A DNA stretch of 36,328 nt, from the IMG/VR virus record IMGVR_UViG_3300046048_000036, positions 1-36,328 of that record. One strand, written 5' to 3'. Positions 569-36,237 of this stretch are shown here, piece by piece. The position numbers and the translations under genes were made by a program. This stretch comes from a virus. How positions within the stretch are numbered: position 1 is the first letter of the stretch; the number at the start of each line of letters is the position of its first letter. The notes beneath the pieces are model-generated. The model did not search any database and was not told where the DNA came from. It saw only the letters and a program-made list of their open reading frames with translations.

Positions 569-3500
569 TTATCTTTTAATTTTTTTCTTTTTAATCTTTT
601 TCTTTTTAACTTTTCTAGATTTAGGTTTTTTCTTTTTCTCATCTTCAGGTTCTTCTATCTCCCACTCAGACCAACCACCAAATAAAGCTAAACGTTCCCA
701 AAGCTCTTTATCAGCTTCTGTAGCTGCTATGACGTTTTCAACTTTTTTTATAGCTTCATCTAATGGTACATTTGTGGTTGCCGATATTACACTTGCACCT
801 GCTAAATACGCTGGATTGTCAAAGCTAAAACCTTTACTCATCATTTCGTCTTTATCCCATTGATAAGATCTAGCGGCTTGATTTATTTTAGAAAGCTTAG
901 AAGAAACAGGTGGAGATATTTTAGTAAGTTCATATCCTACCTTTTCAAGTTTAGGCATTTTCTTTTCTTGCTCACGCATGATACGTATAATAGCATTTTT
1001 ACCTACAGATATCGCGGCACCACCAACACCTGTTCCGCGTAATATAGAATCAGCCATACCGTTAGCCACGTTAACATATTTTTTCTCGTACTTCTCATCA
1101 TCAGCATCTGCCTCACCAAAAGCTATAGCAAACAAACCTTGTTGAAGCGAGTTGAATATTAAATTCTGTACAGTGGTGTAATATATAATTTTGCTAATGT
1201 TTGTTTTAGCGTCACCTCTGCCAGCTTTTAAATCTTTAATAGCTTTATCTGTCAACCTTACGTACTGTGCAGGAGTGTTACCGTATGCAAGTATAGGACG
1301 GCCTAGCGGTCCTGCTTGTTGCATAGATATTCTATCAGGTCTTGACGACTGCTGAGATTCTTCTGCTGTCTCTCTAAAATCTTCAAATGCTTTAGCTTCT
1401 GCTTCAGCTGTGCTTAATCCTTGCTTTTCGTATGTCTTAATTCTGTTTCGGTAAAATGTAGAACCACCAGATGCAATAGCAAAACTATCTGCTATTTGTG
1501 TAGGTGTAAAACCAAATTGTAATAATCTATTAACAACACCTCTTGGGCCGTTTTTATTAGCAGCCTCTGCTATATCAGCTTCGTTAACATTCATACGCAG
1601 TCCGCCACGACGTTCTTTTAAGAAGTCAGAGTTCATTAAGTACTTAAAGTCTTTCCAGTATTGTTTCTGATTCGCAAAAGCCTTAGCTGCTTTAAGCGGA
1701 TTGTTATCTGAGAAGTTAACAAAGTTAACTGATGATAACGTTTGTAGCAAAGATGATCTTGTGTTAAAGAACATTGTTACACCAATACTACCGTTAAGCC
1801 AATCAGTAAATCTACCTGTTAAGCTATCATCTGAAAAAGATCTGTTACGACCAGTCTTCATACGTTGTAAACTATTTTCTATAGCTTTACGATACTTTTT
1901 ACCATACGCAGCTTCAAGTTTGTTTAAGTTTGCTTCGCTAAATATTTCATCTACATTTGTTTGCCACTGCTCTAAATACTTAGCACGTTTAGTAGTGTTA
2001 ACACCATCAAGCAAGTCAGTTGTAATACTACCAGTAAGCCATGTTTCTTTTGGCTTAGCATACCCGTCACCTTTATTGATAGCTACTAATTGTTCTGCAA
2101 ATACTTTTAGCTCAGGACTGTTATTAACAAATTCATTTAATGTTTTTAAGTCTGCTTTACTAACGCCTGGTACTTCCATACCTTGTAATTGATTCCAGGT
2201 ATACACCCGAACCGCTTGTTCTTTAGTGTAAGGTTCGCCTGGTAATTTTTTACGTAAGTCTTTAGGTATAACTCCAAGTTCTTTCTTTAAAACTTTGTAG
2301 TCATTAAACATAGCAATTCTGTCTCTTGATATATCGTTTACACCTCTAGCAAACGGATCAAGAAGATTATACTTGTACCAAGCCATTTGTTGATCACCTA
2401 ACTTACCTTTACCTAATGTTTCATAAAGCAAACCTGTAAAGTCTTGAGCTGAGTAAGGTATTCCTTTAAATATACTGCCTTTACTAGCGCCAACAACTTG
2501 AGCTTTAGCTCTGCTGTATACTTTATCTGCACCAATACCAGTTTTGTTTTCTATAATATCATTAAAGTCTTTGCTAAGATTTATATCTTTAGCATATCTA
2601 ACTTTAGCTTGTTGAACTTTAGACTTAACATCAAACACATTTAAAGCTTGCTTTACTGCTTTAACGTTTTTATACGCATCATCTACAAAGAAAAAATCGT
2701 TATAACCTTCTGCCGCTTTACCAGTTACCCATCTACCTTTAGCTTGTGGAGTTCCATCACCTAATCCAGTTATATTTTCAATAGGTATATCTACACCTAG
2801 AGCATCCATGAATTCTTTTATAGCAACAGCAGAATTAGAAGGTCTTGCAGTAAGTATAAATACGTCTTCAGCACCTCTAGCTTTAACTATATTTTCTATA
2901 GCTTTAAACACAGGACCTTTTTTACCATCAACCACTTTACTAAACTCAGCAAAATCAAACGTGGCTCCTTCCGCTTGTAATTGTTCTGCTTCTCTAGCAA
3001 ATTCTGTTGCTGTTATTTTTCTAGTTTTACCGTCTATCGTATTAACAATAACCTTGCTATTTGTTTTAGCCAATGTATCATCAAAATCAAATATTCTTAT
3101 TTTTTTAATTGGTGCTTTAGGATCTCTAGCTACTTTTAAAGCTTTGTCTAAATTTTCTAAAGACTTTATAACAACATCTCCACCTTGAATATCTTTAGCA
3201 AACCTTTGGCTAGAAGGTAATATAGGATTATTAACTTTTATATTAGCTTCCTTATTTTTTTCTAATATTTTAACAGCATCTGTTTCCATTAAAGATTTTA
3301 TTTCAGAAACATTATCTAAGCTATATTTACTTTTACCTAAACCTGTAAGCTTATCTGGAAGTATTCTTAGATTCATAGTTGTCATTTCAACACCATCCAT
3401 TGTGGTTCTTGAACCTCTAGAAACTCTTAAAGTTACATTAACATCAGCTTTAAATTCAGGTATAGGTAGGTTTAAAGGGTTTTTACCCATAAAAAATAAA

Positions 3501-6500
3501 CCTTTGTTTTTTATTTGTATATAGTTTGTAGGAGGAATTTTTTTAGAATATAACTCACTTATTATATCTTGGTTAAAATTAGTAGATTTAGTTATATTTT
3601 TTTGTAATCCTTCTGTTTGAAGAGTTTTATATATCTCCATAGGAAGTTTACCAGTTTTATCATATAATTTTAAATCAGCTCCTAATTCTCCAGCTCTTTT
3701 TCTATAATCAGACAAAGCTTTTTTAGATTTATTTATTAAATCTTCTTGAAGTCTTTCTGTAAAAGTATATCCTTTATCTTTACTAAAACTAGTTTTTTGA
3801 TTTCTGTGCGTTAAAGTTATACTGCTATATTGAGCTTTTTCAAGTTTAACCTCTACATCAAACTTAGCATCGTGTATAGACGACGCAAAGTCTGGTACAC
3901 CAACCTTGTTTCCTCCAGCTTCTTTAGAAACTTTAAAGCCAGGTATTTTAACCTTATCTAATTTATCTATTATAACATTCTCGTAAGCAAAACCTTTACT
4001 TTTACCTATTCTAGCAGCTTCAAATTCTATAGCTTCTTCTAAAGTTACTTCAGGATTTTTTTCTAAATTAGTTTTTACTTTTTTAATGAACAAATCTTTT
4101 TGATTTGCTTTGAAATCAATGTCTAACTCGTTAGTCTGTAGTTCTATTTCTTTAGCAAACCTAGTACCGCTGCTTAATCTTTTGGCTGTATCAGGAACCA
4201 TTTCTTCCATGATTCTATTACGCATAATAAAATTAATACCAGCTTTAAAATGCTGGGCATCTCTAAACAAAGGCATTTCCTTGCCTGTTTTAGAATCTAT
4301 TTTATTAAACTCCACACCATTAACAATAGTATTTTTGCCTTCAAAAACATTTTTAAATTGGTTAAATGTTCCTATAAGTTTACCTTTTTCATTATAAAAT
4401 GCTTTACCTATTTTAGTTTGATATATACCAGTTGCTTTAGGCGAACCTTTAGCAGGTTGTGTTTTTGTTTTTGGCAGTGTAGACCAAAAGTAATTTATAT
4501 TTTTAAGTATAAATTGTTGAGCAGCTCTAGCGCCTGCTCTATTTTCTATACTCCAATTACGTTTTGGCTGAGTTAATATTTCTAAACCAACCTTATTATT
4601 CATACCGAGCATTTCAGCATAAAGTTCTATAACTTCTTTAGGTGGTTCAGCTTGTTTAATTGATGATATTTCTTTACCTTCAAAAGCTTTATTTATAGCT
4701 TCAGATTCTGCTTTTAAAAATACTTGTTCTGGCGTTAAACCCTCTAACTCTTTTACTTTACCGGACTTTTTAATTTTATCTACAACTTTATTAAGCTGTG
4801 CTGGTATGTACTCAGTGCCTTCGCTAGGTTTTTTTGGTAAACTTTTTTCTAGAACTGTAGTAGTCTCGCCAACTCCTGGTTCTACAACCATTTTCTCTGC
4901 AGCACTACCTTCTATACGTGTAGTTTCAACCTCGCCTTTCTTTAATTGCTTTAAGATATTACCATAACGTAGCTTTAGTCTGGGTGCTAGGTAAGCTCCA
5001 AAATTAATTCTTTTACCAAGATCCTCTGCCTTACCTGTTACTACTATTGGTTCGTAGTTATTTATAATTTTAGTTAACTCTTCGTTATATCCTTGCTCAA
5101 ATTCTTGAGCTGTTTTTCTTTTACCTTTTTCTAAAGCTAATATTTTAGGATTGTTAGCGGCTTGAAAAGCTAATTTCTTTACTAAAGGTCTATTGATTTC
5201 TTCTAGCTCTCTAACAACTTTTTCTCTAGCCTCGCCTTCTAATTCTGAAACTTTAAAAGCGCCTTCTTGTATTATTCTTTCTTCAACTTTTAAGTTTCTA
5301 GAAGCTAACTCTTTATTAGTCTCTGATATTTCTTTAGCTGCCCTTGTTTCTGATACAGGTTTTTTATCTGATACAGGTTTTTTACCTGTTTTCATATCTA
5401 TTAACTTTTGACCGTCAATTTGTATTTGTTCAAATTGCTCAATCTTTTTTCTAACACCTCTACTAGTACCACGAGTTAGTGTAGTTCCAATACCTTCTAA
5501 AAAATTTATAAGTTCAGCAGCTGTAGTAAAATTAGTCTTGCTATTAAAACCAATACCCATTTTATTGCCTATGTTAACTATACTTCTTTTAATGCTAGGT
5601 AGTAAACCTTGTTTAAGTAATAAGTCTCTATACTGAGGTTGTTGTAAGAAGTTAACTACATTGGCAACATATTCCTCAGGTCTTGATGACGGTTTTTCTT
5701 TATAAGCTTCTTTTATAGCCTCTTCAAAAGTTAAATTTTTTTTATCACCTACAGTAAACTTTGTATCTTTAAAAGCATTGTTTACATCTGTTTGTATTTT
5801 TTCTTTAAAAACTTTTGCAGCTTTAGGATTTTGATCAAACATTTTATCAAACACCGCGTGGTAAAGCTCTTCAGATACAACGCCTAAGTTTAATTTTTCT
5901 GCATTTACTTTTACATCTCCAGACACAGGGTCGTACTCAGCTTTTGTATTAGGGTCTGCAAATGTTTCTCCGTCTTTTAAAACTTTAATAGCCGGACCAT
6001 CTTTATCTTTATTTTTAAATACTTCAGACTGCTTTAAGTTCTGTTCTATTTTAGATATCTTTGTAAGCATAGCAGTTTTATTAGCCTCGTAGTTAGCCAC
6101 AACTGTTTGAGCTTGCCTTTTTTGTTCTAAAGTAGAATTAGTATCGTTTATTACTTCTAAAGCTTTGTCGGCTTGCTCACTCTGTTTGCCAAGATCCATA
6201 TCGTTAAATGGCTTGTCTGCTTGATCTATAGTTCTTTTTAAATCTTGAGCTAGTCTTTCTTTGTTTTCAAGCTCAAAGCTTGACACTCGAGGATCACCTT
6301 CTTCTATTTTAGCTTTATCAGATCTTATTTCAGAGTTTAATTTATCGAGCATTCTTCTTCTTGATGAAATGCTTTTAAAATCTGTACCTTTAAGCTTGGT
6401 AATACCTAACACTCCAAATACAGCAGCGCTTACTAATTCTTCCTGTAAAGGATCGTCCATTGCACCATAATAGTCATTTAGGTATTTTTTAACACTATCA

Positions 6501-8647
6501 CTACCTGTTAAATCACTTATTATAGCTTCTGCTAAAACCGCTGTGTTACTACCAGCAACACCACCAACCGCACCACCTATAGATTTTTCTATAAGATTGT
6601 TAAATCTAGCTAGCTCACCAGAAAATTTACCTATAAATTTAGAAGCTGCCATACCACCAATAGCAAAACCACCACCAGCACCGGTAGGAGCTTCACCAAA
6701 ACTAACACCTTGAAACTTAATTTCTTCTAAAGCTGTAGACGCAAGAAAAGCTTCTACCTTTCTACCATCTTTAGCTAAACCAGCTATGTATCTAGTTATA
6801 CCAGCAGCCCCAGCTATTTTATTTGCAATAAAAAACTTGAATAACTCAGGTGTAAACTCACCTAAACCTTCAGCAAGTTTAGTACCAAACGTTCTTTCAA
6901 AGTTTTTCTTTTGTTCTGGAGTTAAAGTTATTCCAGCATCTAAAAATAATTTTTCTTGTTCGTCTAACTGCTTACGAACAGATGTTGGTAATACTCCTTC
7001 TGACAAACCACTAGCTTCTGCAGCTGTTTCTATATACCTACCTAACTTACCTAAAGCTGTTTTGTTTATACTAGCTGGATCTATATTTAATACATAAGTT
7101 GTATTAAGAGCTTCTTTTCTGAGATCAAGTTGTATTTTTTCATCATACAATGAGTCTATCATTGCTGGTAAATCTGGAATAAGATAATCCTTGCCTTCTG
7201 GCTGTGCTGCTTTTAAAGACTCTTGTATAAAATCTTTATTCATAAAACGAAGTTCACTAATAGGCACGTTTTTTATTATGCCATTAGCATCTGTTTTATA
7301 ACCTCTGCTAGTTAGAATAGCAGACATTTCTGCGGCTGACTGACCTGTAGGTTTTAAATCATATGTTGTTGCTAGGTTTTTTTCGTTGTCTTGTCTGTTT
7401 AAAACATTTAAAACAAACTCTCTTTCTAAAGCTTGTTCGTCTAAACTATAATATCTTTGTTCTAATTTTTCTACCTCTTCAGTATAATCTGTTACACTTG
7501 AAGCTGTAGCCGCTTCTGTTAAACCAACTCTATTACCAGAGTCTTCATCAAACAGGTATCTATAGCTAGCAGCTTTTATTCTTTTTTGTTGTCTATCATA
7601 ACCCTGCTCTCCAGGTTTTAATAAATCACCAGTTGCACCTATTTGCATACGCATGAAAGCATCATCTAATTCAGGTTGTAATTCAACTAGCTGACGCTTG
7701 GCCCGACTAATAGCCGCTTCATCTTGCGATGTAAATATTATTGATTCTAACTTTCTTCTTTGATTATTTAATAAACCGTACTGTCTTCTAAGGGGAGGTA
7801 TTTCGCTTAGTGTTTGTTTAACACCTTCGTCACGTCTTATATCATAAACACCTTGATCAATAGCTTGATCTACTTTTTTATACTTAGAAGCGTTTATAAC
7901 TTTAGATTCTTTTACTCTTTCTTTTTCAATTTCTTCCTGTATAATTCTTGTAAAAACTTCTTCTTGATCACCTATAAAAGTATCTGCGATAGGTTCAAGT
8001 TCAGTATCATATATACGAGATCTTTTTTTAATTTCATCAGCAACAGCAGTTTCTACTTTTACTAAATCTTCTATAGTTTTTCCTTCAACACCAAGATTAT
8101 ATATACCACCGTTTTGTATTACTTGTTTTACTTTGTCTCTATAGCTGTTTATTAATTTACGTTGCTCAATAGCAAACTTGCTACTAGTTTTTAATACACC
8201 GTCTTGAACCACCTTATCTGTAGTGATATCTTTTACTGCTGAAACTGGTTCTTCTACAATAACTTCTTCACTAATAGGAGCTTCAGCTTGTACGGTTTTA
8301 GCATCAAATTTTTGTAATGTTTTATTTTTATTATTTTTTATTGCTAGATCTACGGACTCCAATAAACCAGCTATTGAATCTGATTCCGTACTCTCTGGTT
8401 GAGCATCTACAATCATGGATGCTCTGCTTGGAGTTGTTACTGGTGCTACAGCCGCACCCTTTGCCACAGCACCGTTTGTCTTTCCCTTAGTTGGGGTTGT
8501 TTGTATTTCGTCTGTAACTTCTACAATTTCTAAACCATCTTTTTGATTTACATATTCATCAACAGAAAGCCCTTCAACTTCTGCAGCTTCAATAACAAAA
8601 GATTCACTTATTGGTTCACCATTAAAAGTGTAATCTGTATTTACCAT
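569..8647 (-). CDS. Giant polyvalent internal virion protein with nuclease and HAD phosphatase domains (2692 aa)
   Basis: The last and largest gene of the structural block, in the place of T7 gene 16 (ejected internal core protein). Visible parts: an N-terminal motif YTFNGEPIS and a Thr/Pro/Ala linker (about 50-80); long charged helical stretches; a Gly/Ala-rich hydrophobic zone (about 650-710) that could enter a membrane; a degenerate metallopeptidase-like motif EELYH (926-930); a PD-(D/E)XK nuclease signature (E1556, D1586, E1599, K1601, then AQY); a complete HAD phosphatase signature (DFDDTLAKT from D1854, T1933 in ILTARP, D1989/D1990 in FFVDDAYKN); a conserved C-terminal region with GNTPAQY; and a Lys-rich tail. 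I infer that it is packaged and delivered into the host with the DNA. Such multi-domain proteins fit the polyvalent-protein concept known for phages and plasmids. No lytic transglycosylase motif of the T7 gp16 kind was seen. It has a perfect 18-bp in-frame tandem repeat at 5349-5384. Confidence 0.88.
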   Translation of the reverse strand: MVNTDYTFNGEPISESFVIEAAEVEGLSVDEYVNQKDGLEIVEVTDEIQTTPTKGKTNGAVAKGAAVAPVTTPSRASMIVDAQPESTESDSIAGLLESVDLAIKNNKNKTLQKFDAKTVQAEAPISEEVIVEEPVSAVKDITTDKVVQDGVLKTSSKFAIEQRKLINSYRDKVKQVIQNGGIYNLGVEGKTIEDLVKVETAVADEIKKRSRIYDTELEPIADTFIGDQEEVFTRIIQEEIEKERVKESKVINASKYKKVDQAIDQGVYDIRRDEGVKQTLSEIPPLRRQYGLLNNQRRKLESIIFTSQDEAAISRAKRQLVELQPELDDAFMRMQIGATGDLLKPGEQGYDRQQKRIKAASYRYLFDEDSGNRVGLTEAATASSVTDYTEEVEKLEQRYYSLDEQALEREFVLNVLNRQDNEKNLATTYDLKPTGQSAAEMSAILTSRGYKTDANGIIKNVPISELRFMNKDFIQESLKAAQPEGKDYLIPDLPAMIDSLYDEKIQLDLRKEALNTTYVLNIDPASINKTALGKLGRYIETAAEASGLSEGVLPTSVRKQLDEQEKLFLDAGITLTPEQKKNFERTFGTKLAEGLGEFTPELFKFFIANKIAGAAGITRYIAGLAKDGRKVEAFLASTALEEIKFQGVSFGEAPTGAGGGFAIGGMAASKFIGKFSGELARFNNLIEKSIGGAVGGVAGSNTAVLAEAIISDLTGSDSVKKYLNDYYGAMDDPLQEELVSAAVFGVLGITKLKGTDFKSISSRRRMLDKLNSEIRSDKAKIEEGDPRVSSFELENKERLAQDLKRTIDQADKPFNDMDLGKQSEQADKALEVINDTNSTLEQKRQAQTVVANYEANKTAMLTKISKIEQNLKQSEVFKNKDKDGPAIKVLKDGETFADPNTKAEYDPVSGDVKVNAEKLNLGVVSEELYHAVFDKMFDQNPKAAKVFKEKIQTDVNNAFKDTKFTVGDKKNLTFEEAIKEAYKEKPSSRPEEYVANVVNFLQQPQYRDLLLKQGLLPSIKRSIVNIGNKMGIGFNSKTNFTTAAELINFLEGIGTTLTRGTSRGVRKKIEQFEQIQIDGQKLIDMKTGKKPVSDKKPVSETRAAKEISETNKELASRNLKVEERIIQEGAFKVSELEGEAREKVVRELEEINRPLVKKLAFQAANNPKILALEKGKRKTAQEFEQGYNEELTKIINNYEPIVVTGKAEDLGKRINFGAYLAPRLKLRYGNILKQLKKGEVETTRIEGSAAEKMVVEPGVGETTTVLEKSLPKKPSEGTEYIPAQLNKVVDKIKKSGKVKELEGLTPEQVFLKAESEAINKAFEGKEISSIKQAEPPKEVIELYAEMLGMNNKVGLEILTQPKRNWSIENRAGARAAQQFILKNINYFWSTLPKTKTQPAKGSPKATGIYQTKIGKAFYNEKGKLIGTFNQFKNVFEGKNTIVNGVEFNKIDSKTGKEMPLFRDAQHFKAGINFIMRNRIMEEMVPDTAKRLSSGTRFAKEIELQTNELDIDFKANQKDLFIKKVKTNLEKNPEVTLEEAIEFEAARIGKSKGFAYENVIIDKLDKVKIPGFKVSKEAGGNKVGVPDFASSIHDAKFDVEVKLEKAQYSSITLTHRNQKTSFSKDKGYTFTERLQEDLINKSKKALSDYRKRAGELGADLKLYDKTGKLPMEIYKTLQTEGLQKNITKSTNFNQDIISELYSKKIPPTNYIQIKNKGLFFMGKNPLNLPIPEFKADVNVTLRVSRGSRTTMDGVEMTTMNLRILPDKLTGLGKSKYSLDNVSEIKSLMETDAVKILEKNKEANIKVNNPILPSSQRFAKDIQGGDVVIKSLENLDKALKVARDPKAPIKKIRIFDFDDTLAKTNSKVIVNTIDGKTRKITATEFAREAEQLQAEGATFDFAEFSKVVDGKKGPVFKAIENIVKARGAEDVFILTARPSNSAVAIKEFMDALGVDIPIENITGLGDGTPQAKGRWVTGKAAEGYNDFFFVDDAYKNVKAVKQALNVFDVKSKVQQAKVRYAKDINLSKDFNDIIENKTGIGADKVYSRAKAQVVGASKGSIFKGIPYSAQDFTGLLYETLGKGKLGDQQMAWYKYNLLDPFARGVNDISRDRIAMFNDYKVLKKELGVIPKDLRKKLPGEPYTKEQAVRVYTWNQLQGMEVPGVSKADLKTLNEFVNNSPELKVFAEQLVAINKGDGYAKPKETWLTGSITTDLLDGVNTTKRAKYLEQWQTNVDEIFSEANLNKLEAAYGKKYRKAIENSLQRMKTGRNRSFSDDSLTGRFTDWLNGSIGVTMFFNTRSSLLQTLSSVNFVNFSDNNPLKAAKAFANQKQYWKDFKYLMNSDFLKERRGGLRMNVNEADIAEAANKNGPRGVVNRLLQFGFTPTQIADSFAIASGGSTFYRNRIKTYEKQGLSTAEAEAKAFEDFRETAEESQQSSRPDRISMQQAGPLGRPILAYGNTPAQYVRLTDKAIKDLKAGRGDAKTNISKIIYYTTVQNLIFNSLQQGLFAIAFGEADADDEKYEKKYVNVANGMADSILRGTGVGGAAISVGKNAIIRIMREQEKKMPKLEKVGYELTKISPPVSSKLSKINQAARSYQWDKDEMMSKGFSFDNPAYLAGASVISATTNVPLDEAIKKVENVIAATEADKELWERLALFGGWSEWEIEEPEDEKKKKPKSRKVKKKKIKKKKIKR
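5349..5384. repeat. Perfect 18-bp tandem duplication inside the giant gene
   Basis: Two adjacent identical 18-base units (5349-5366 and 5367-5384), each TCTGATACAGGTTTTTTA on the plus strand. In the protein they give a repeated Lys-Lys-Pro-Val-Ser-(Asp/Glu) hexapeptide in a charged linker. Being a multiple of three it keeps the frame, and its perfection implies a recent slippage event. Confidence 0.9.
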
Positions 8648-11084: not shown

Positions 11085-11495
11085 TTATATATTTTTAATT
11101 ATTTCGTGTGACGGTTCTTCATCAACAAGCCACCCTAATTTTTTATGTGTATTTATCAAATGTTTATTTCTACCGATAGTAAACATATGTACTTTACCTA
11201 ACTTCTTACATAATTCTTCTGCAGAAGTTATAAGTAACTCTATCGCTTGCTTGCGATCTTTATCTCTATACTCTGGATCTGATACTATCCATTCGAGTAA
11301 AACAGCGTCTGAGTTTGTCATGTATAAAAACCCAGCGCATACTGGCCTACCGTTTTTCTCTACCATTAATCCTCCTTTACCGTTATCAGGTAAAAAAGTT
11401 CTTGGTGGACTTACCGGCCATTTAGGCCAATGTTTCCACCACTCGCATAGAGTTTCGTAATCTTCGTCTTTTAATAGACGCGCTTTTAATTCCAT
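11085..11495 (-). CDS. GNAT-fold-like protein, T7 gp13 position (136 aa)
   Basis: The length and pattern suggest a small GNAT acetyltransferase fold: LKDEDYETLCEWWKHW at the start, a beta pair (GLMVEKNGRPVCAGFLYM), LLEWIVSDPEYRDKDRKQA in place of motif A, then a helix and HLINTHKKLGW at the end. The acetyl-CoA loop Q/R-x-x-G-x-G/A is degraded (YRDKDRKQA has no glycine), so catalysis is doubtful. It lies between the nozzle-like protein and the internal proteins, exactly where T7 has gene 13, a virion assembly factor of about 138 residues. I infer a structural or assembly role. A working acetyltransferase is the alternative. Confidence 0.75.
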   Translation of the reverse strand: MELKARLLKDEDYETLCEWWKHWPKWPVSPPRTFLPDNGKGGLMVEKNGRPVCAGFLYMTNSDAVLLEWIVSDPEYRDKDRKQAIELLITSAEELCKKLGKVHMFTIGRNKHLINTHKKLGWLVDEEPSHEIIKNI

Positions 11496-11500
11496 ATAAT

Positions 11501-12943
11501 TTAATAACTTGATTCTACGTATTCAGATGACACAGCGAACAGCTCGCGTGTTTTACCACCTGCTCCAGCCACTTGTGTACTATCATCTGTTCTTATAGTC
11601 ACAGTTGCATAGTAACCTTTTACACCTGAAATACTAGATCCATATACAACTTCTCCAGGGGTGCCAATATTGCTATTATTTACAATATTAGCAAAATACT
11701 TGCCTTCTTTATTGTAAAAACCAGCATAGTATTGTATACCGTCTTGAGTGTAAGCACCTTCGTCGTAGCTATAAATTAAGTTAGAAGTGTCATTTAATTC
11801 AAAACTTCTAGCCGCGTTAAAACTTGGAACTTCCCAACCGGTAGAACCTTCATAATTAATTGTTTTAAACACCTTAGACGCGCTTACTTTTGGATTAAAT
11901 ATAAACGTTACATTAGAATCAGAGTAAACTCCGTAGAAATTACCTCTATTGTTATCATTCCCAATTGATTGGTAATTATGCTCGTATAGCTTACCGTTAT
12001 TGATACTATAATATTTAGATTTAATACTAAAAGCTTGTTCTGGTTTATATGTAAATCTACTTGTCCAACCCAGTACAGACTCGTCAAATGATAGTGTTTG
12101 ATATGTATCTGAAAACTGACCTTGATCACCTGAAATTGTTGGTATTATATTTGAACCTTGCAAACTAACCACATATTGTTTTGTGTATATATCCCAAGCG
12201 CCTATAGCTTTATCTGAAGAGTTTAAATTACCAAGCTCATCTCTAAAATAGTCATACATACCGTAGTTAGATATCTCTGTAATGCCGTCTTGTGATAAGC
12301 GTATCACGGCGTTTCTGTTTTTATCTACAAAATATTTTCTGTAACCATATACCGCAAAACTTTCTGGATTAGTGCTTATACCAAAGTTACCAGCATAAGG
12401 AACTATTTGGCCAATAACTAAATTTAACTGACTAACAGCCGTGCCTCCGCCTTCCGCTGTATATATAGCATCTTTATCTATAAGAGCTCTATTTACTTTA
12501 TTTTCTTGGAATATAATAAGGTTTGTATCTTCCGCGTATAATTTTTGTATACTACCATTTGAAGGATCTACAGATTTAGTTATATCTTCACCTACACTAA
12601 AAACGTTAGTGTTGTTAATACCAGTTCTAGAGTTAAATATGCCTGAGTATATAAGTGCATTACCTCTTATACTTCCATTAGGCTCGTCGTCTACTAAATA
12701 GGCCCTTACGCCATAAGATATATTAGTGTTATTGTACCCACCTCTTATTCTAGACTCTTCAACAAACCAACTGTAATTTTGATCAGTTTGATTAGTTCTT
12801 GGATAACTGCCAATATTAGGATTTCTAACAGGCACACCTGTGCTACCATTCCATATAGGAGGTGTACTGCTCGTCGCTCCGCTAGGTATTGTCTTCTTTA
12901 ATAAAAAAGAGTTAAAATATTTTACTTCTACTATTGCTGCCAT
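11501..12943 (-). CDS. Putative tail (nozzle-like) structural protein (480 aa)
   Basis: A Tyr/Asn/Gly/Ser-rich, beta-predicted protein with repeated short aromatic turns, such as YGYRKYFVDKNRNAVIRLS, ISNYGMYDYFRDEL and WDIYTKQYVVSLQG. The last two resemble stretches seen in the beta-propeller part of podovirus tail tubular protein B (nozzle) proteins. It has no signal peptide or membrane span. It follows the 1320-residue tail protein by three bases and precedes the GNAT-like gene, where T7 carries gene 12. The two proteins may share the work of a single T7 gp12. The assignment rests on composition, motif and position, not on a confident family match. Confidence 0.7.
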   Translation of the reverse strand: MAAIVEVKYFNSFLLKKTIPSGATSSTPPIWNGSTGVPVRNPNIGSYPRTNQTDQNYSWFVEESRIRGGYNNTNISYGVRAYLVDDEPNGSIRGNALIYSGIFNSRTGINNTNVFSVGEDITKSVDPSNGSIQKLYAEDTNLIIFQENKVNRALIDKDAIYTAEGGGTAVSQLNLVIGQIVPYAGNFGISTNPESFAVYGYRKYFVDKNRNAVIRLSQDGITEISNYGMYDYFRDELGNLNSSDKAIGAWDIYTKQYVVSLQGSNIIPTISGDQGQFSDTYQTLSFDESVLGWTSRFTYKPEQAFSIKSKYYSINNGKLYEHNYQSIGNDNNRGNFYGVYSDSNVTFIFNPKVSASKVFKTINYEGSTGWEVPSFNAARSFELNDTSNLIYSYDEGAYTQDGIQYYAGFYNKEGKYFANIVNNSNIGTPGEVVYGSSISGVKGYYATVTIRTDDSTQVAGAGGKTRELFAVSSEYVESSY

Positions 12944-28205: not shown

Positions 28206-28477
28206 TACCTTGATCTACCCTCTGCAAAACCTTTAAAACTTTTTTCTTTAGTTTCTTTAGCATCGCCGTCAAGCATTGATTTTTCTTCTTCTATTCTAGC
28301 AAGTATTTCAAACGCATCGAATATAGCAAGCTTCTTTGTAGCAGCTGCGTTCTTAAGCCTATCAGCAGATATGTCATCGTCAGAATCAACTATAGGTTCT
28401 TTAGCTACCTTTATCAATTCCTCAACTGCTCTTTGCCCAGCTTGGATTATATTCTTCCTCGTTTCCTTTGAACTCAT
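28205..28477 (-). CDS. Putative terminase small subunit (90 aa)
   Basis: A small, almost wholly helical, charged protein (MSSKETRKNIIQAGQRAVEE, then DDDISADRLKNAAATKKLA and DAFEILARIEEEK, with a Gly/Arg tail). It sits directly upstream of the large terminase and shares one base with it (TAATG). Position and helical build fit the DNA-recognition subunit of terminase, but no helix-turn-helix is obvious. Its first 56 bases overlap, in another frame, the end of the double-GroES gene. Function is inferred from position; a small regulatory or scaffold-type helper of the terminase is the alternative. Confidence 0.68.
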   Translation of the reverse strand: MSSKETRKNIIQAGQRAVEELIKVAKEPIVDSDDDISADRLKNAAATKKLAIFDAFEILARIEEEKSMLDGDAKETKEKSFKGFAEGRSR

Positions 28478-29027
28478 ACTTAACTAAAATATCATTTGAT
28501 TGCATACAGTATAGTCTTTGTTTGTTTATAACAAACTCAAACTCTCTATTAGATTTAAATCCAACAAGATCACCTTCGTTTATACCTAAAGTTTTTAAGG
28601 TTTTATTACCTATCTTTACTATACCTTTATTTTTTACTTCAACTTCTTGTGACCAGTCGTCTGTGTTTTTTATTGGTATTATAAAACAATGTTCACCTAA
28701 AGGTTTCCATTGATATATATTTTTGTAAAGATATATTTGATCTAGTTGGCATAAGTATTGATTGTCGTTTAGCGTTTTACTACTATCAACTTCTTTACCT
28801 TGGTGGTTATAATATCTTCTAAATACATTGTGGTGTATTATAACCTCGTCACCTTCTTCTATGGGTGTTGAATAAGCTGATGGTGTAGAAACAACTATAG
28901 CTTTTCTACTTATTAACTTAAAGTTTTCTATACTAGAATTAACTACAAGTTTACTACCATCTATATCAACCTCATTGTCATACCTACTTTTAACAGGCGT
29001 GACTATAAAATCAAAAACGCTCCTCAT
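28422..29027 (-). CDS. Tandem double GroES-fold co-chaperonin-like protein (201 aa)
   Basis: Two GroES-like barrels in one chain. Domain 1 (about 4-102): DFIVTPVKSRYDNE, then SKLVVNSSIENFKLISRKA in the place of the GroES mobile loop (LVV for the IVL that contacts GroEL), then EEGDEVIIHHNVFRRY and CQLDQIYLY. Domain 2 (about 112-187): HCFIIPIK, GIVKIG, EGDLVGFKSNREFEFV and MQSNDILVKYE, matching the GD-x-V-x-F and SDIL features of the GroES C-terminal half but lacking a long mobile loop. A double-Cpn10 layout is known from chloroplast Cpn20. It ends with EEEYNPSWAKSS, in the region overlapping the small terminase gene. Position beside the terminase suggests help in virion assembly, a role like that of T4 gp31; this is inference. 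Confidence 0.75.
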   Translation of the reverse strand: MRSVFDFIVTPVKSRYDNEVDIDGSKLVVNSSIENFKLISRKAIVVSTPSAYSTPIEEGDEVIIHHNVFRRYYNHQGKEVDSSKTLNDNQYLCQLDQIYLYKNIYQWKPLGEHCFIIPIKNTDDWSQEVEVKNKGIVKIGNKTLKTLGINEGDLVGFKSNREFEFVINKQRLYCMQSNDILVKYEFKGNEEEYNPSWAKSS

Positions 29028-34437: not shown

Positions 34438-34697
34438 AACACTATAACAACATCAATATCTTTTATAACGTAAAAAACTTCTTTATCAACTTCAAGGCGA
34501 TGGCTAGCATTTTTGTCATAGAATATTGTTTGACCTTCTTCTATACCTTTTACATCACTACCACAGTGAAGTACAGTTGCTTCTTTATAACGAACGTCAA
34601 CTCTTTGAGAACCTGTAAGCATGAGACCACCATCGGTTTTTTTAATGGTATCTTCTTTTTTCTTTTGTATTACTATATTTCTACCTACTGCTATCAT
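34434..34697 (-). CDS. groES: Viral co-chaperonin GroES (87 aa)
   Basis: Small cpn10-like barrel: MIAVGRNIVIQKKKEDT, then the mobile loop GGLMLTGSQRVDVRYKEATV with LML in place of the IVL that docks on GroEL, then EEGQTIFYDKNASHRLEVD and YVIKDIDVVIVL, matching GD-x-V-x-F and SDIL regions of GroES. I chose the ATG at 34697; an in-frame TTG at 34703 would add two residues. The reading frame overlaps the groEL end by 17 bases. Order is groEL then groES, the reverse of the usual bacterial operon. At 87 residues it is slightly shorter than E. coli GroES (97). Confidence 0.86.
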   Translation of the reverse strand: MIAVGRNIVIQKKKEDTIKKTDGGLMLTGSQRVDVRYKEATVLHCGSDVKGIEEGQTIFYDKNASHRLEVDKEVFYVIKDIDVVIVL

Positions 34698-36237
34698 CTC
34701 CAACTCTTAAATTATTGATTACACAATCTGTAGAAAGTATAGTGGTAGCCACTGAAGCCGCGTGTTTGAGTGCGCTTTTAGTTACAAGCAATGGATCAAT
34801 AATACCTGTATCAACCATATGAACAGTTTCACCTGTAACTACATTAACACCCATACCTTCTTCGGGCGTACCAACCTCTTCTAGTCCAGCGTTATTTAGT
34901 ATAGTTTTAAATGGAGCTTTAATAGCTTCTAGCAATATCTTTTCACCAATGTTTTTACTTTTGGTTTTATTAGATGCATCGCGAAGAGCTATGCCACCTC
35001 CAGATACTATACCTTCTTTTATCGCGGCTTTAGTAGCACAGATAGCATCTTCGACTCTATCTGATTTTTCTTTTAACTCTATCTCTGAGTTAGCCCCTAT
35101 TTTTACAACTGCAACTTTCGCTGATAGTCTAGCTAATCTTTTTTCAAGTCTTATAACTTCACCAGGAGCTTTAGCTTTAGATATCAATTTTTTAACTGAA
35201 TCAACTAGGTGCTTTATCTCGTCAGTAGAAGTATCTACTTGAAGTATTGTATCTGTATCACTAGTTGTGCTCTTAAAACACGATCCTAGAAAGTCTGGGT
35301 TTATAACATCTAAGTCATCACCAAGATCTTCGTTGATAACAGTAGCACCGGTAAGTATAGCTAAGTCAGACATTGTATCTTTCTTGTTTATACCGTACGT
35401 AGGCGCGTTTACTACATTTACTTTTATATTACCTTTAGCCTTGTTCATCGCTAGTGTTGATAACACTTCTGTTTCTAAATCACCTATAATAAGCAATGGC
35501 TTTTTATTTTTAATTACATACTCAAGTACTGACTGAATCTTGCGTACAGATTCTATAGGTGACTCGATTAGTAATACAAGTGGGTTGTCAAGTTCTGCTA
35601 CACGTTTTTCTTTACTTGTAACAAAGTGAGAGTTGGTTAAACCCTTTTCGTATTGTACACCGTCAACAAGTTCAAACTCTGTTTTGTCCTCTGTTGTTGG
35701 CTCCATTATAACAACACCGTTTTCACCAGCTGCTTTAAAAGCATCACCGATTATTTTACCTAGTTCTAAATCATTGTTACAACTAATTGTTGCTACATCA
35801 TCAAGCATGCTACCTTTTACTTCAATAGCTTTTGCTTCTAGGTATTTAACAACTTTATCAACGGCGTTTGTTATACCGTTTTTAATATTACGTATATTAT
35901 CTTTGTCGATATTTTTATACGCTTCAGTTAAAATTGAGTGCGCTAGTACTGTAGCCGTTGTTGTTCCATCGCCAGCTTCTTGAACAGTTTTTCTAGCAGC
36001 TTCCTTTAGAAGCGTAGCACCCATATTTTCTACTGGGTCTAATAGTGTTATAGCATTTGCTACAGTTACACCATCTTTTGTAATGACAGGTTTACCCTGA
36101 TCATCTTCTAGTATTACACATTGGCCGCTAGCCCCAAGTGTGGAGCTAACAGCCTTTGTTAATTTATCTATACCTTTAAACACCTTATCTTTAGCCTCTT
36201 GACCAAAGTTAAGATTTTTGACAATTTTGTCAGTCAT
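34681..36237 (-). CDS. groEL: Viral chaperonin GroEL (60 kDa class, 518 aa)
   Basis: Complete group I chaperonin. Equatorial ATPase parts: ITKDGV with D55, GDGTTT (89-94), and D397 in VEDAICATKAAIKEG, the equivalent of E. coli D398. SGGGIAL (412-418) and the C-terminal KHAASVATTILSTDCVINN are conserved. The apical groove is altered: at the place of E. coli YLSPYF (199-204) it has LTNSHF (200-205), so Y199 and Y203 become Leu and His, while the two Leu of the next groove helix remain (L259, L262). The C-terminus stops at RVGDDSSR with no Gly-Gly-Met tail. It is 518 residues against 548 for E. coli. The paired groES follows, overlapping. It may fold phage capsid or other virion proteins; target is inferred. 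Confidence 0.97.
   Translation of the reverse strand: MTDKIVKNLNFGQEAKDKVFKGIDKLTKAVSSTLGASGQCVILEDDQGKPVITKDGVTVANAITLLDPVENMGATLLKEAARKTVQEAGDGTTTATVLAHSILTEAYKNIDKDNIRNIKNGITNAVDKVVKYLEAKAIEVKGSMLDDVATISCNNDLELGKIIGDAFKAAGENGVVIMEPTTEDKTEFELVDGVQYEKGLTNSHFVTSKEKRVAELDNPLVLLIESPIESVRKIQSVLEYVIKNKKPLLIIGDLETEVLSTLAMNKAKGNIKVNVVNAPTYGINKKDTMSDLAILTGATVINEDLGDDLDVINPDFLGSCFKSTTSDTDTILQVDTSTDEIKHLVDSVKKLISKAKAPGEVIRLEKRLARLSAKVAVVKIGANSEIELKEKSDRVEDAICATKAAIKEGIVSGGGIALRDASNKTKSKNIGEKILLEAIKAPFKTILNNAGLEEVGTPEEGMGVNVVTGETVHMVDTGIIDPLLVTKSALKHAASVATTILSTDCVINNLRVGDDSSR

What the first reader, a model, noticed from the sequence alone, without database searches (positions are those of the whole stretch)
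2600..4000. Nuclease and phosphatase signatures together inside a giant ejected protein
Seen: E1556, D1586, E1599 and K1601 fit PD-(D/E)XK spacing. D1854/D1856, T1933 and D1989/D1990 fit a complete HAD active site about 250 residues later. All key residues are present, so both may be active. Established: HAD phosphatases include DNA 3-prime phosphatases such as that in T4 polynucleotide kinase; polyvalent proteins bundle many enzymes to be delivered on entry. Inference: DNA-end cutting and cleaning, or attack on host DNA, in the first minutes of infection.
Basis: partly seen in the sequence, partly recalled or inferred. Interest (0 to 1): 0.68.

Follow-up and report, generated by a model that had tools for sequence, protein, structure and literature searches.

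The report
Giant phage protein with swappable nuclease
A marine phage related to flavobacterial viruses carries a 2,692-residue protein, probably injected into the host with its DNA, whose C-terminal part is shared with its relatives while the rest is exchanged between phages; in this phage the exchanged part includes a restriction-enzyme-like DNA-cutting domain next to a phosphatase-like domain.

Summary
The giant gene (569-8647, minus strand) holds both domains. The nuclease domain (residues 1541-1790) belongs to a marine-phage family with a stand-alone member in cyanophage P-SSM2. E1556, D1586, E1599 and K1601 are invariant in 68 of 68 homologues covering them. A 65-sequence AlphaFold2 model (pLDDT 84.6) best matches HhaI endonuclease (Z 11.2); the next twelve rows are other PD-(D/E)XK nucleases. 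The phosphatase domain (1825-2023) is HAD-type: D1854, D1856, T1933, D1989 and D1990 are invariant in about 85 homologues, and PHROG 'polynucleotide kinase' matches 64 of 65. Its fold was not predicted.

The HAD is a near-constant neighbour of a 660-residue C-terminal domain and occurs in 81 of 85 sampled sequences without the nuclease. The nuclease occurs in six giants, one without HAD. Against the close relative L002, residues about 70-1833 have no detectable DNA match; in L004 the nuclease position holds an unrelated domain. This is a giant cargo-type protein with an exchanged interior, a new variant of the polyvalent-protein theme. Injection and enzyme activity are inferred, not shown.

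The parts
569..8647 (-). Giant protein, 2692 aa, last gene of the structural block
   Evidence: single open frame; giants of mostly 2,200-3,600 aa in about 80 related viral contigs
8438..8530 (-). Short conserved N-terminal element, residues about 40-70 (VEVTDEIQTTPTKGKTNGAVAKGA), function unknown
   Evidence: shared with L002, L003, L005, L007 and in part L008, L012, L073: 8 of 88 giants, and the core pattern occurs nowhere else in 217,224 aa of giants; 93% DNA identity to L002 at residues 43-63 while the residues on either side are about 50%
3149..8440 (-). Replaceable interior, residues about 70-1833
   Evidence: no detectable DNA match to L002, although matches resume at residue 1833 and run past the gene end; pairs of giants with 82-95% identical C-domains can have 0-46% alignable interior, others are fully alignable
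5858..5872 (-). EELYH at residues 926-930, possibly a degenerate zincin motif
   Evidence: 78 of 87 unique giants carry an HExxH motif; the window does not. That it is the same site was not shown by alignment
3278..4027 (-). PD-(D/E)XK nuclease domain, residues 1541-1790
   Evidence: invariant E/D/E/K, AF2 pLDDT 84.6, HhaI Z 11.2, phrog_26930 E 1e-8
3845..3982 (-). Span holding the nuclease catalytic residues E1556, D1586, E1599, K1601
2579..3175 (-). HAD phosphatase-like domain, residues 1825-2023
   Evidence: phrog_415 in 64/65, TIGR01509 E 6e-6 just below cut-off and TIGR01664 in 37/65 far below cut-off, DUF2608 above its cut-off; motifs invariant
590..2578 (-). Conserved C-terminal domain, residues 2024-2686, unknown function
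   Evidence: directly follows the HAD in nearly all sampled giants; a 137-column stretch matches Tenacibaculum phage Gundel gp74 'structural protein', E 9e-11 with filters off
11501..12943 (-). Muzzle-like tail gene upstream (context)
   Evidence: Pfam crAss_MUZ_C, E 8.9e-13, above its cut-off

Best explanation
The protein is a giant virion cargo (ejection) protein of a podovirus related to Flavobacterium, Cellulophaga and Maribacter phages. Its C-terminal unit (HAD phosphatase-like domain plus a 660-residue domain) is conserved; ahead of it lies a large interior that is exchanged between phages by recombination and in most relatives contains a zincin-type HExxH motif. In this phage the position just before the HAD holds a PD-(D/E)XK endonuclease domain of HhaI/Hjc-like fold, shared with a stand-alone nuclease family of marine phages. 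Shown here: the domains, the predicted fold of the nuclease, the conserved active-site residues, the exchange of the interior, and synteny with a giant virion protein annotated from MS/MS in another phage. Inferred: that the protein is packaged and injected, that the nuclease cuts DNA (host, rival element, or a structured intermediate) early in infection, and that the HAD removes phosphates from nucleic-acid ends or nucleotides as a separate function.
For: Nuclease. HAD. HAD plus C-domain as a near-constant pair. Exchange; L004 matches the window at residues 974-1505 and 1792-1845 but holds the unrelated family S between them. Cargo position: after terminase, portal, structural and muzzle-like genes; Cellulophaga phage phi18:3 gp123 in the same position is annotated from MS/MS; residues 501-910 of L017, which carries the same nuclease, HAD and C-domain, match a profile of phi18:3 gp123, phi38:1 gp101 and Gundel gp74 at hhalign E 9.6e-32, reversed control 0.026. 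Purifying selection: window versus L017 nuclease dN 0.17, dS 0.71; HAD versus four relatives dN 0.17-0.28, dS 0.82-1.15.
Against: No experiment on this phage. The window's own region 471-920 does not match phi18:3 gp123, so the packaging link runs through L017, and phmmer did not report the L017 link at E 1e-3 although L017 was in the set searched. No PDB Foldseek match passes 0.001 (HhaI 3.1e-3). No clear avoidance of any palindromic tetramer in nuclease-bearing contigs.
Confidence: 0.66

Rival explanations
1. The nuclease domain is a junction- or structure-specific nuclease (Hjc-like) that helps the incoming phage genome recombine, circularise or replicate, rather than attacking host DNA.
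For: All five PDB sequence matches to the 65-sequence profile are Hjc-type resolvases (one, ST1444, is called a Holliday junction resolvase), with E, D, E and K in register in the alignments shown (E 0.03-0.78); VIA rows 3-12 are Hjc; no palindrome avoidance.
Against: The best fold match is HhaI, a sequence-specific enzyme, over 187 residues against about 100-110 for Hjc; the E-values are not significant on their own; the domain is absent from most giants, so these phages do not generally need it.
Confidence: 0.3
2. The giant is not injected; it acts later, in assembly or host takeover, as a non-virion protein.
For: No proteomics for this phage; large multidomain proteins need not be packaged.
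Against: Position after the tail genes; syntenic giants annotated as structural, one from MS/MS; L017 homology to it.
Confidence: 0.15
3. Both enzymatic domains are no longer catalytic and serve as structural parts of the virion.
For: The window has EELYH where most giants have HExxH, so another domain of this protein may have lost its site.
Against: Active-site residues are invariant over homologues down to 20-25% identity, and both domains are under purifying selection.
Confidence: 0.07
4. HAD and nuclease act as a pair that cuts DNA and trims the 3' ends.
For: Adjacent in the window, L017, L027, L065 and L103; weak 3'-phosphatase signal.
Against: 81 of 85 sampled HAD sequences come from proteins without the nuclease; L134 has the nuclease without HAD; PD-(D/E)XK products normally carry 3'-OH (general knowledge).
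Confidence: 0.06

Closest known systems
Polyvalent proteins (Iyer et al. 2017, PMC5512222)
   Same: giant multidomain phage protein, unrelated enzyme domains in one chain, zincin-like motifs in most relatives, encoded with virion genes
PhicrAss001 cargo proteins gp45-gp50 (PMC10172136)
   Same: large proteins of a muzzle-bearing podovirus stored in the virion
   Different: those are thought to be channel- or RNA-polymerase-related; homology to them was not tested here
Prochlorococcus phage P-SSM2 PSSM2_192 (phrog_26930)
   Same: same nuclease family, same four residues
   Different: stand-alone 225-aa gene of a T4-like cyanophage, annotated hypothetical
HhaI restriction endonuclease (6uke)
   Same: best fold match, 187 residues aligned, rmsd 4.1
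   Different: 15% identity; specificity unknown; a methylase partner was not sought
Archaeal-type Hjc Holliday junction resolvases
   Same: catalytic E, D, E-x-K in register and core fold
   Different: about 120-160 residues, about 100-110 aligned; sequence match not significant
T4 polynucleotide kinase-phosphatase
   Same: HAD motif I (hhalign E 1e-4); PHROG 415 bears this name
   Different: only motif I aligns; no kinase domain was detected beside the HAD

Membership tests
PD-(D/E)XK nuclease superfamily | catalytic E / D / (D/E)xK motif conserved across the family | tested here: met
   68/68 homologues
PD-(D/E)XK nuclease superfamily | restriction-endonuclease-like fold | tested here: met
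   AF2 model pLDDT 84.6; VIA rows 1-13 are HhaI, I-Ssp6803I, Hjc and HinP1I; Foldseek E for HhaI 3.1e-3
PD-(D/E)XK nuclease superfamily | metal-dependent phosphodiester cleavage | not testable with these tools
   needs protein
Hjc Holliday junction resolvase | significant sequence similarity to known Hjc | tested here: inconclusive
   best E 0.031, residues in register
HhaI-type restriction enzyme | recognition of a specific site, visible as site avoidance in the carrier | tested here: inconclusive
   no clear avoidance of palindromic tetramers; TCGA 0.68 against 0.86 in controls, significance not tested
HAD superfamily | motif I DxDxT, motif II T, motif III K, motif IV DD | tested here: met
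   D1854, D1856, T1933, D1989, D1990 in 84-85 of 85; K1970 at least 95%
HAD superfamily | match to curated HAD models above cut-off | tested here: inconclusive
   TIGR01509 26.5 bits against 29.4; PF11019 DUF2608 24.7 against 22.6, a HAD-clan family from memory; PF00702 below cut-off
HAD superfamily | Rossmannoid HAD fold | not tested
DNA 3'-phosphatase / T4 Pnkp | equivalog-level match | tested here: not met
   TIGR01664 17.4 bits against cut-off 107.65; phrog_415 'polynucleotide kinase' in 64/65 keeps it the nearest named phage family
Polyvalent / ejected cargo protein | giant multidomain protein encoded among virion genes | tested here: met
Polyvalent / ejected cargo protein | present in the virion and delivered to the host | not testable with these tools
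   indirect only: phi18:3 gp123 annotated from MS/MS and its homology to L017

The most novel reading that the evidence does not exclude
These phages inject a giant protein whose enzyme load, including a DNA-cutting domain, is exchanged between phages in blocks ahead of a constant C-terminal unit, comparable to the exchange of toxin domains in polymorphic toxins but delivered by the virion on entry.
Probability: 0.35. Interest if true: 0.8.

Novelty: new variant of a known kind. Interest (0 to 1): 0.58.

Why it matters
It gives a concrete case where most of a probable virion cargo protein is replaced between close relatives while its C-terminal unit and the surrounding genes stay the same. It also gives a likely activity to a marine-phage protein family that the P-SSM2 record and PHROGs list without a function. 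The conserved C-terminal unit and the short N-terminal element are handles for testing what directs such giants into the virion.

Tried and rejected
A first AF2 model from 4 sequences was poor (pLDDT 52.7) and was replaced by the 65-sequence model. PDB profile searches with the 4-row nuclease alignment and with the HAD alignment gave nothing relevant. Pfam gave no family for the C-domain or for slot family S. One pattern scan of genome contigs found no relative of the nuclease, which does not exclude any. tblastn of the whole giant and of the HAD against the phage collection found none. The window's region 471-920 does not match phi18:3 gp123. phmmer of the reference giants reported no IMG/VR giant at E 1e-3, while blastp gave 1e-11 to 1e-12 for L017 and L008; 300 shuffles of the L017 segment gave no blastp E below 0.013 and hhalign gave 9.6e-32, so the L017 link was kept. 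A first reading that residues 1-100 form a constant N-terminus was dropped: against L002 only about residues 43-63 are strongly conserved. Palindrome avoidance gave no clear signal. The HhaI structure paper is not held.

Full report
Setting. The window is a 36.3 kb virus record. Its terminase and portal are closest to a Manatee Spring podovirus (62% and 51%) and then to Flavobacterium elemo, Maribacter and Cellulophaga phages. The giant gene is the last of a block that runs terminase, portal, structural proteins, a muzzle-like protein (Pfam crAss_MUZ_C, E 8.9e-13), a GNAT-like protein, a fibre-like protein and a 498-aa protein.

The nuclease domain. Starting from the window and L017, the searches led to Prochlorococcus phage P-SSM2 PSSM2_192, a stand-alone 225-aa hypothetical protein, and to phrog_26930. 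Scans of viral contigs gave 69 unique sequences. E1556, D1586, E1599 and K1601 are invariant in all 68 that cover them. An AlphaFold2 model from 65 sequences has pLDDT 84.6 and pTM 0.79. VIA-align gives HhaI Z 11.2, rmsd 4.1 over 187 residues, well above the following rows, which are PD-(D/E)XK nucleases down to row 13. Foldseek E for HhaI is 3.1e-3, not below 0.001. With the 65-row profile the only PDB sequence matches are Hjc-type resolvases with the motif in register, E 0.03-0.78. I read this as a genuine PD-(D/E)XK domain whose substrate is open.

The HAD domain. The residues of motifs I, II and IV are invariant in about 85 sequences, and K1970 is a likely motif III. Named matches are PHROG 415 'polynucleotide kinase' (64/65), DUF2608 (59/65) and generic HAD models. 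DNA 3'-phosphatase TIGR01664 is matched by 37/65 but far below its cut-off. T4 Pnkp aligns only at motif I. The fold was not predicted.

Architecture. In nearly all sampled giants the HAD is followed at once by a 660-residue C-domain. L010 and L011 have the C-domain without HAD, and L134 has the nuclease directly before the C-domain. Six unique giants carry the nuclease: window, L017, L027, L065, L103 and L134. The records of L017, L027, L065 and L103 encode a relative of the window's terminase at 74-75% identity; L134's record was not searched. In 62 ORFs a different family, S, lies in the region just before the HAD; it has an invariant Glu-His pair and no Pfam family. 78 of 87 unique giants carry an HExxH motif.

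Exchange. Against L002 the upstream gene is mostly 95-100% identical in DNA, falling to 82-90% over its last 250 bases; inside the giant only about residues 43-63 are strongly conserved (93%), and nothing is detectable from residue 69 to 1833. The match resumes at the HAD (71-81%) and rises to 91-100% from about residue 2083. L004 matches the window at residues 974-1505 and 1792-1845 but has S between them. Across 77 giants, pairs with 82-95% identical C-domains range from fully alignable interiors to none, so replacement is common but not universal. Between window and L002 the HAD is far more diverged than the C-domain (dS 0.82 against 0.12), which points to an exchange point near residue 2050-2080.

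Injection. The gene order is that of cargo genes. Phi18:3 gp123 in the same place is annotated from MS/MS. A segment of L017, the relative with the same three C-terminal modules, aligns with a profile that includes gp123 at hhalign E 9.6e-32, reversed control 0.026. The window's own interior does not. So injection is likely but indirect.

Verdict. Both domains are confirmed as domains, the nuclease also by its predicted fold. The pairing as one machine is not supported. The main result is the exchanged interior ahead of a conserved C-terminal unit. I place it as a new variant of the polyvalent-protein theme, whose main description does not mention phosphatases and says that its ParB-like DNases are not accompanied by other DNase domains (PMC5512222).

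Noticed in passing
window 590-3175 versus L002 and L004: Nucleotide identity steps from about 0.71-0.84 to 0.88-1.0 near residue 2050-2080, close to the HAD/C-domain boundary, suggesting a recombination point.
   Followed up: partly
window 8438-8530: Short conserved element VEVTDEIQTTPTKGKTNGAVAKGA near the N-terminus, in 8 of 88 giants and nowhere else in them; packaging signal, processing site or recombination anchor are all possible.
   Followed up: partly
window 11501-12943: crAss_MUZ_C muzzle-type domain in a phage related to flavophages.
   Followed up: no
window 34681-36237 and 28422-29027: Phage-encoded GroEL and a GroES-like protein.
   Followed up: no
window 11085-11495: GNAT acetyltransferase-like gene (Pfam E 2.8e-4) between the muzzle-like and fibre-like genes.
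   Followed up: no
L008:4247-12586, residues 840-963: A second HAD-like stretch in one giant (E 8e-7 with filters off, 4e-5 by default).
   Followed up: no
62 giant ORFs, e.g. L005:7509-8198: Slot family S with an invariant Glu-His pair, no Pfam family.
   Followed up: partly
window 5858-5872: EELYH in the window's giant, while 78 of 87 giants have an HExxH motif; homology of the site was not aligned.
   Followed up: partly
L002, L004: Giant ORFs interrupted near the HAD in two close relatives, by frameshift or assembly error.
   Followed up: no
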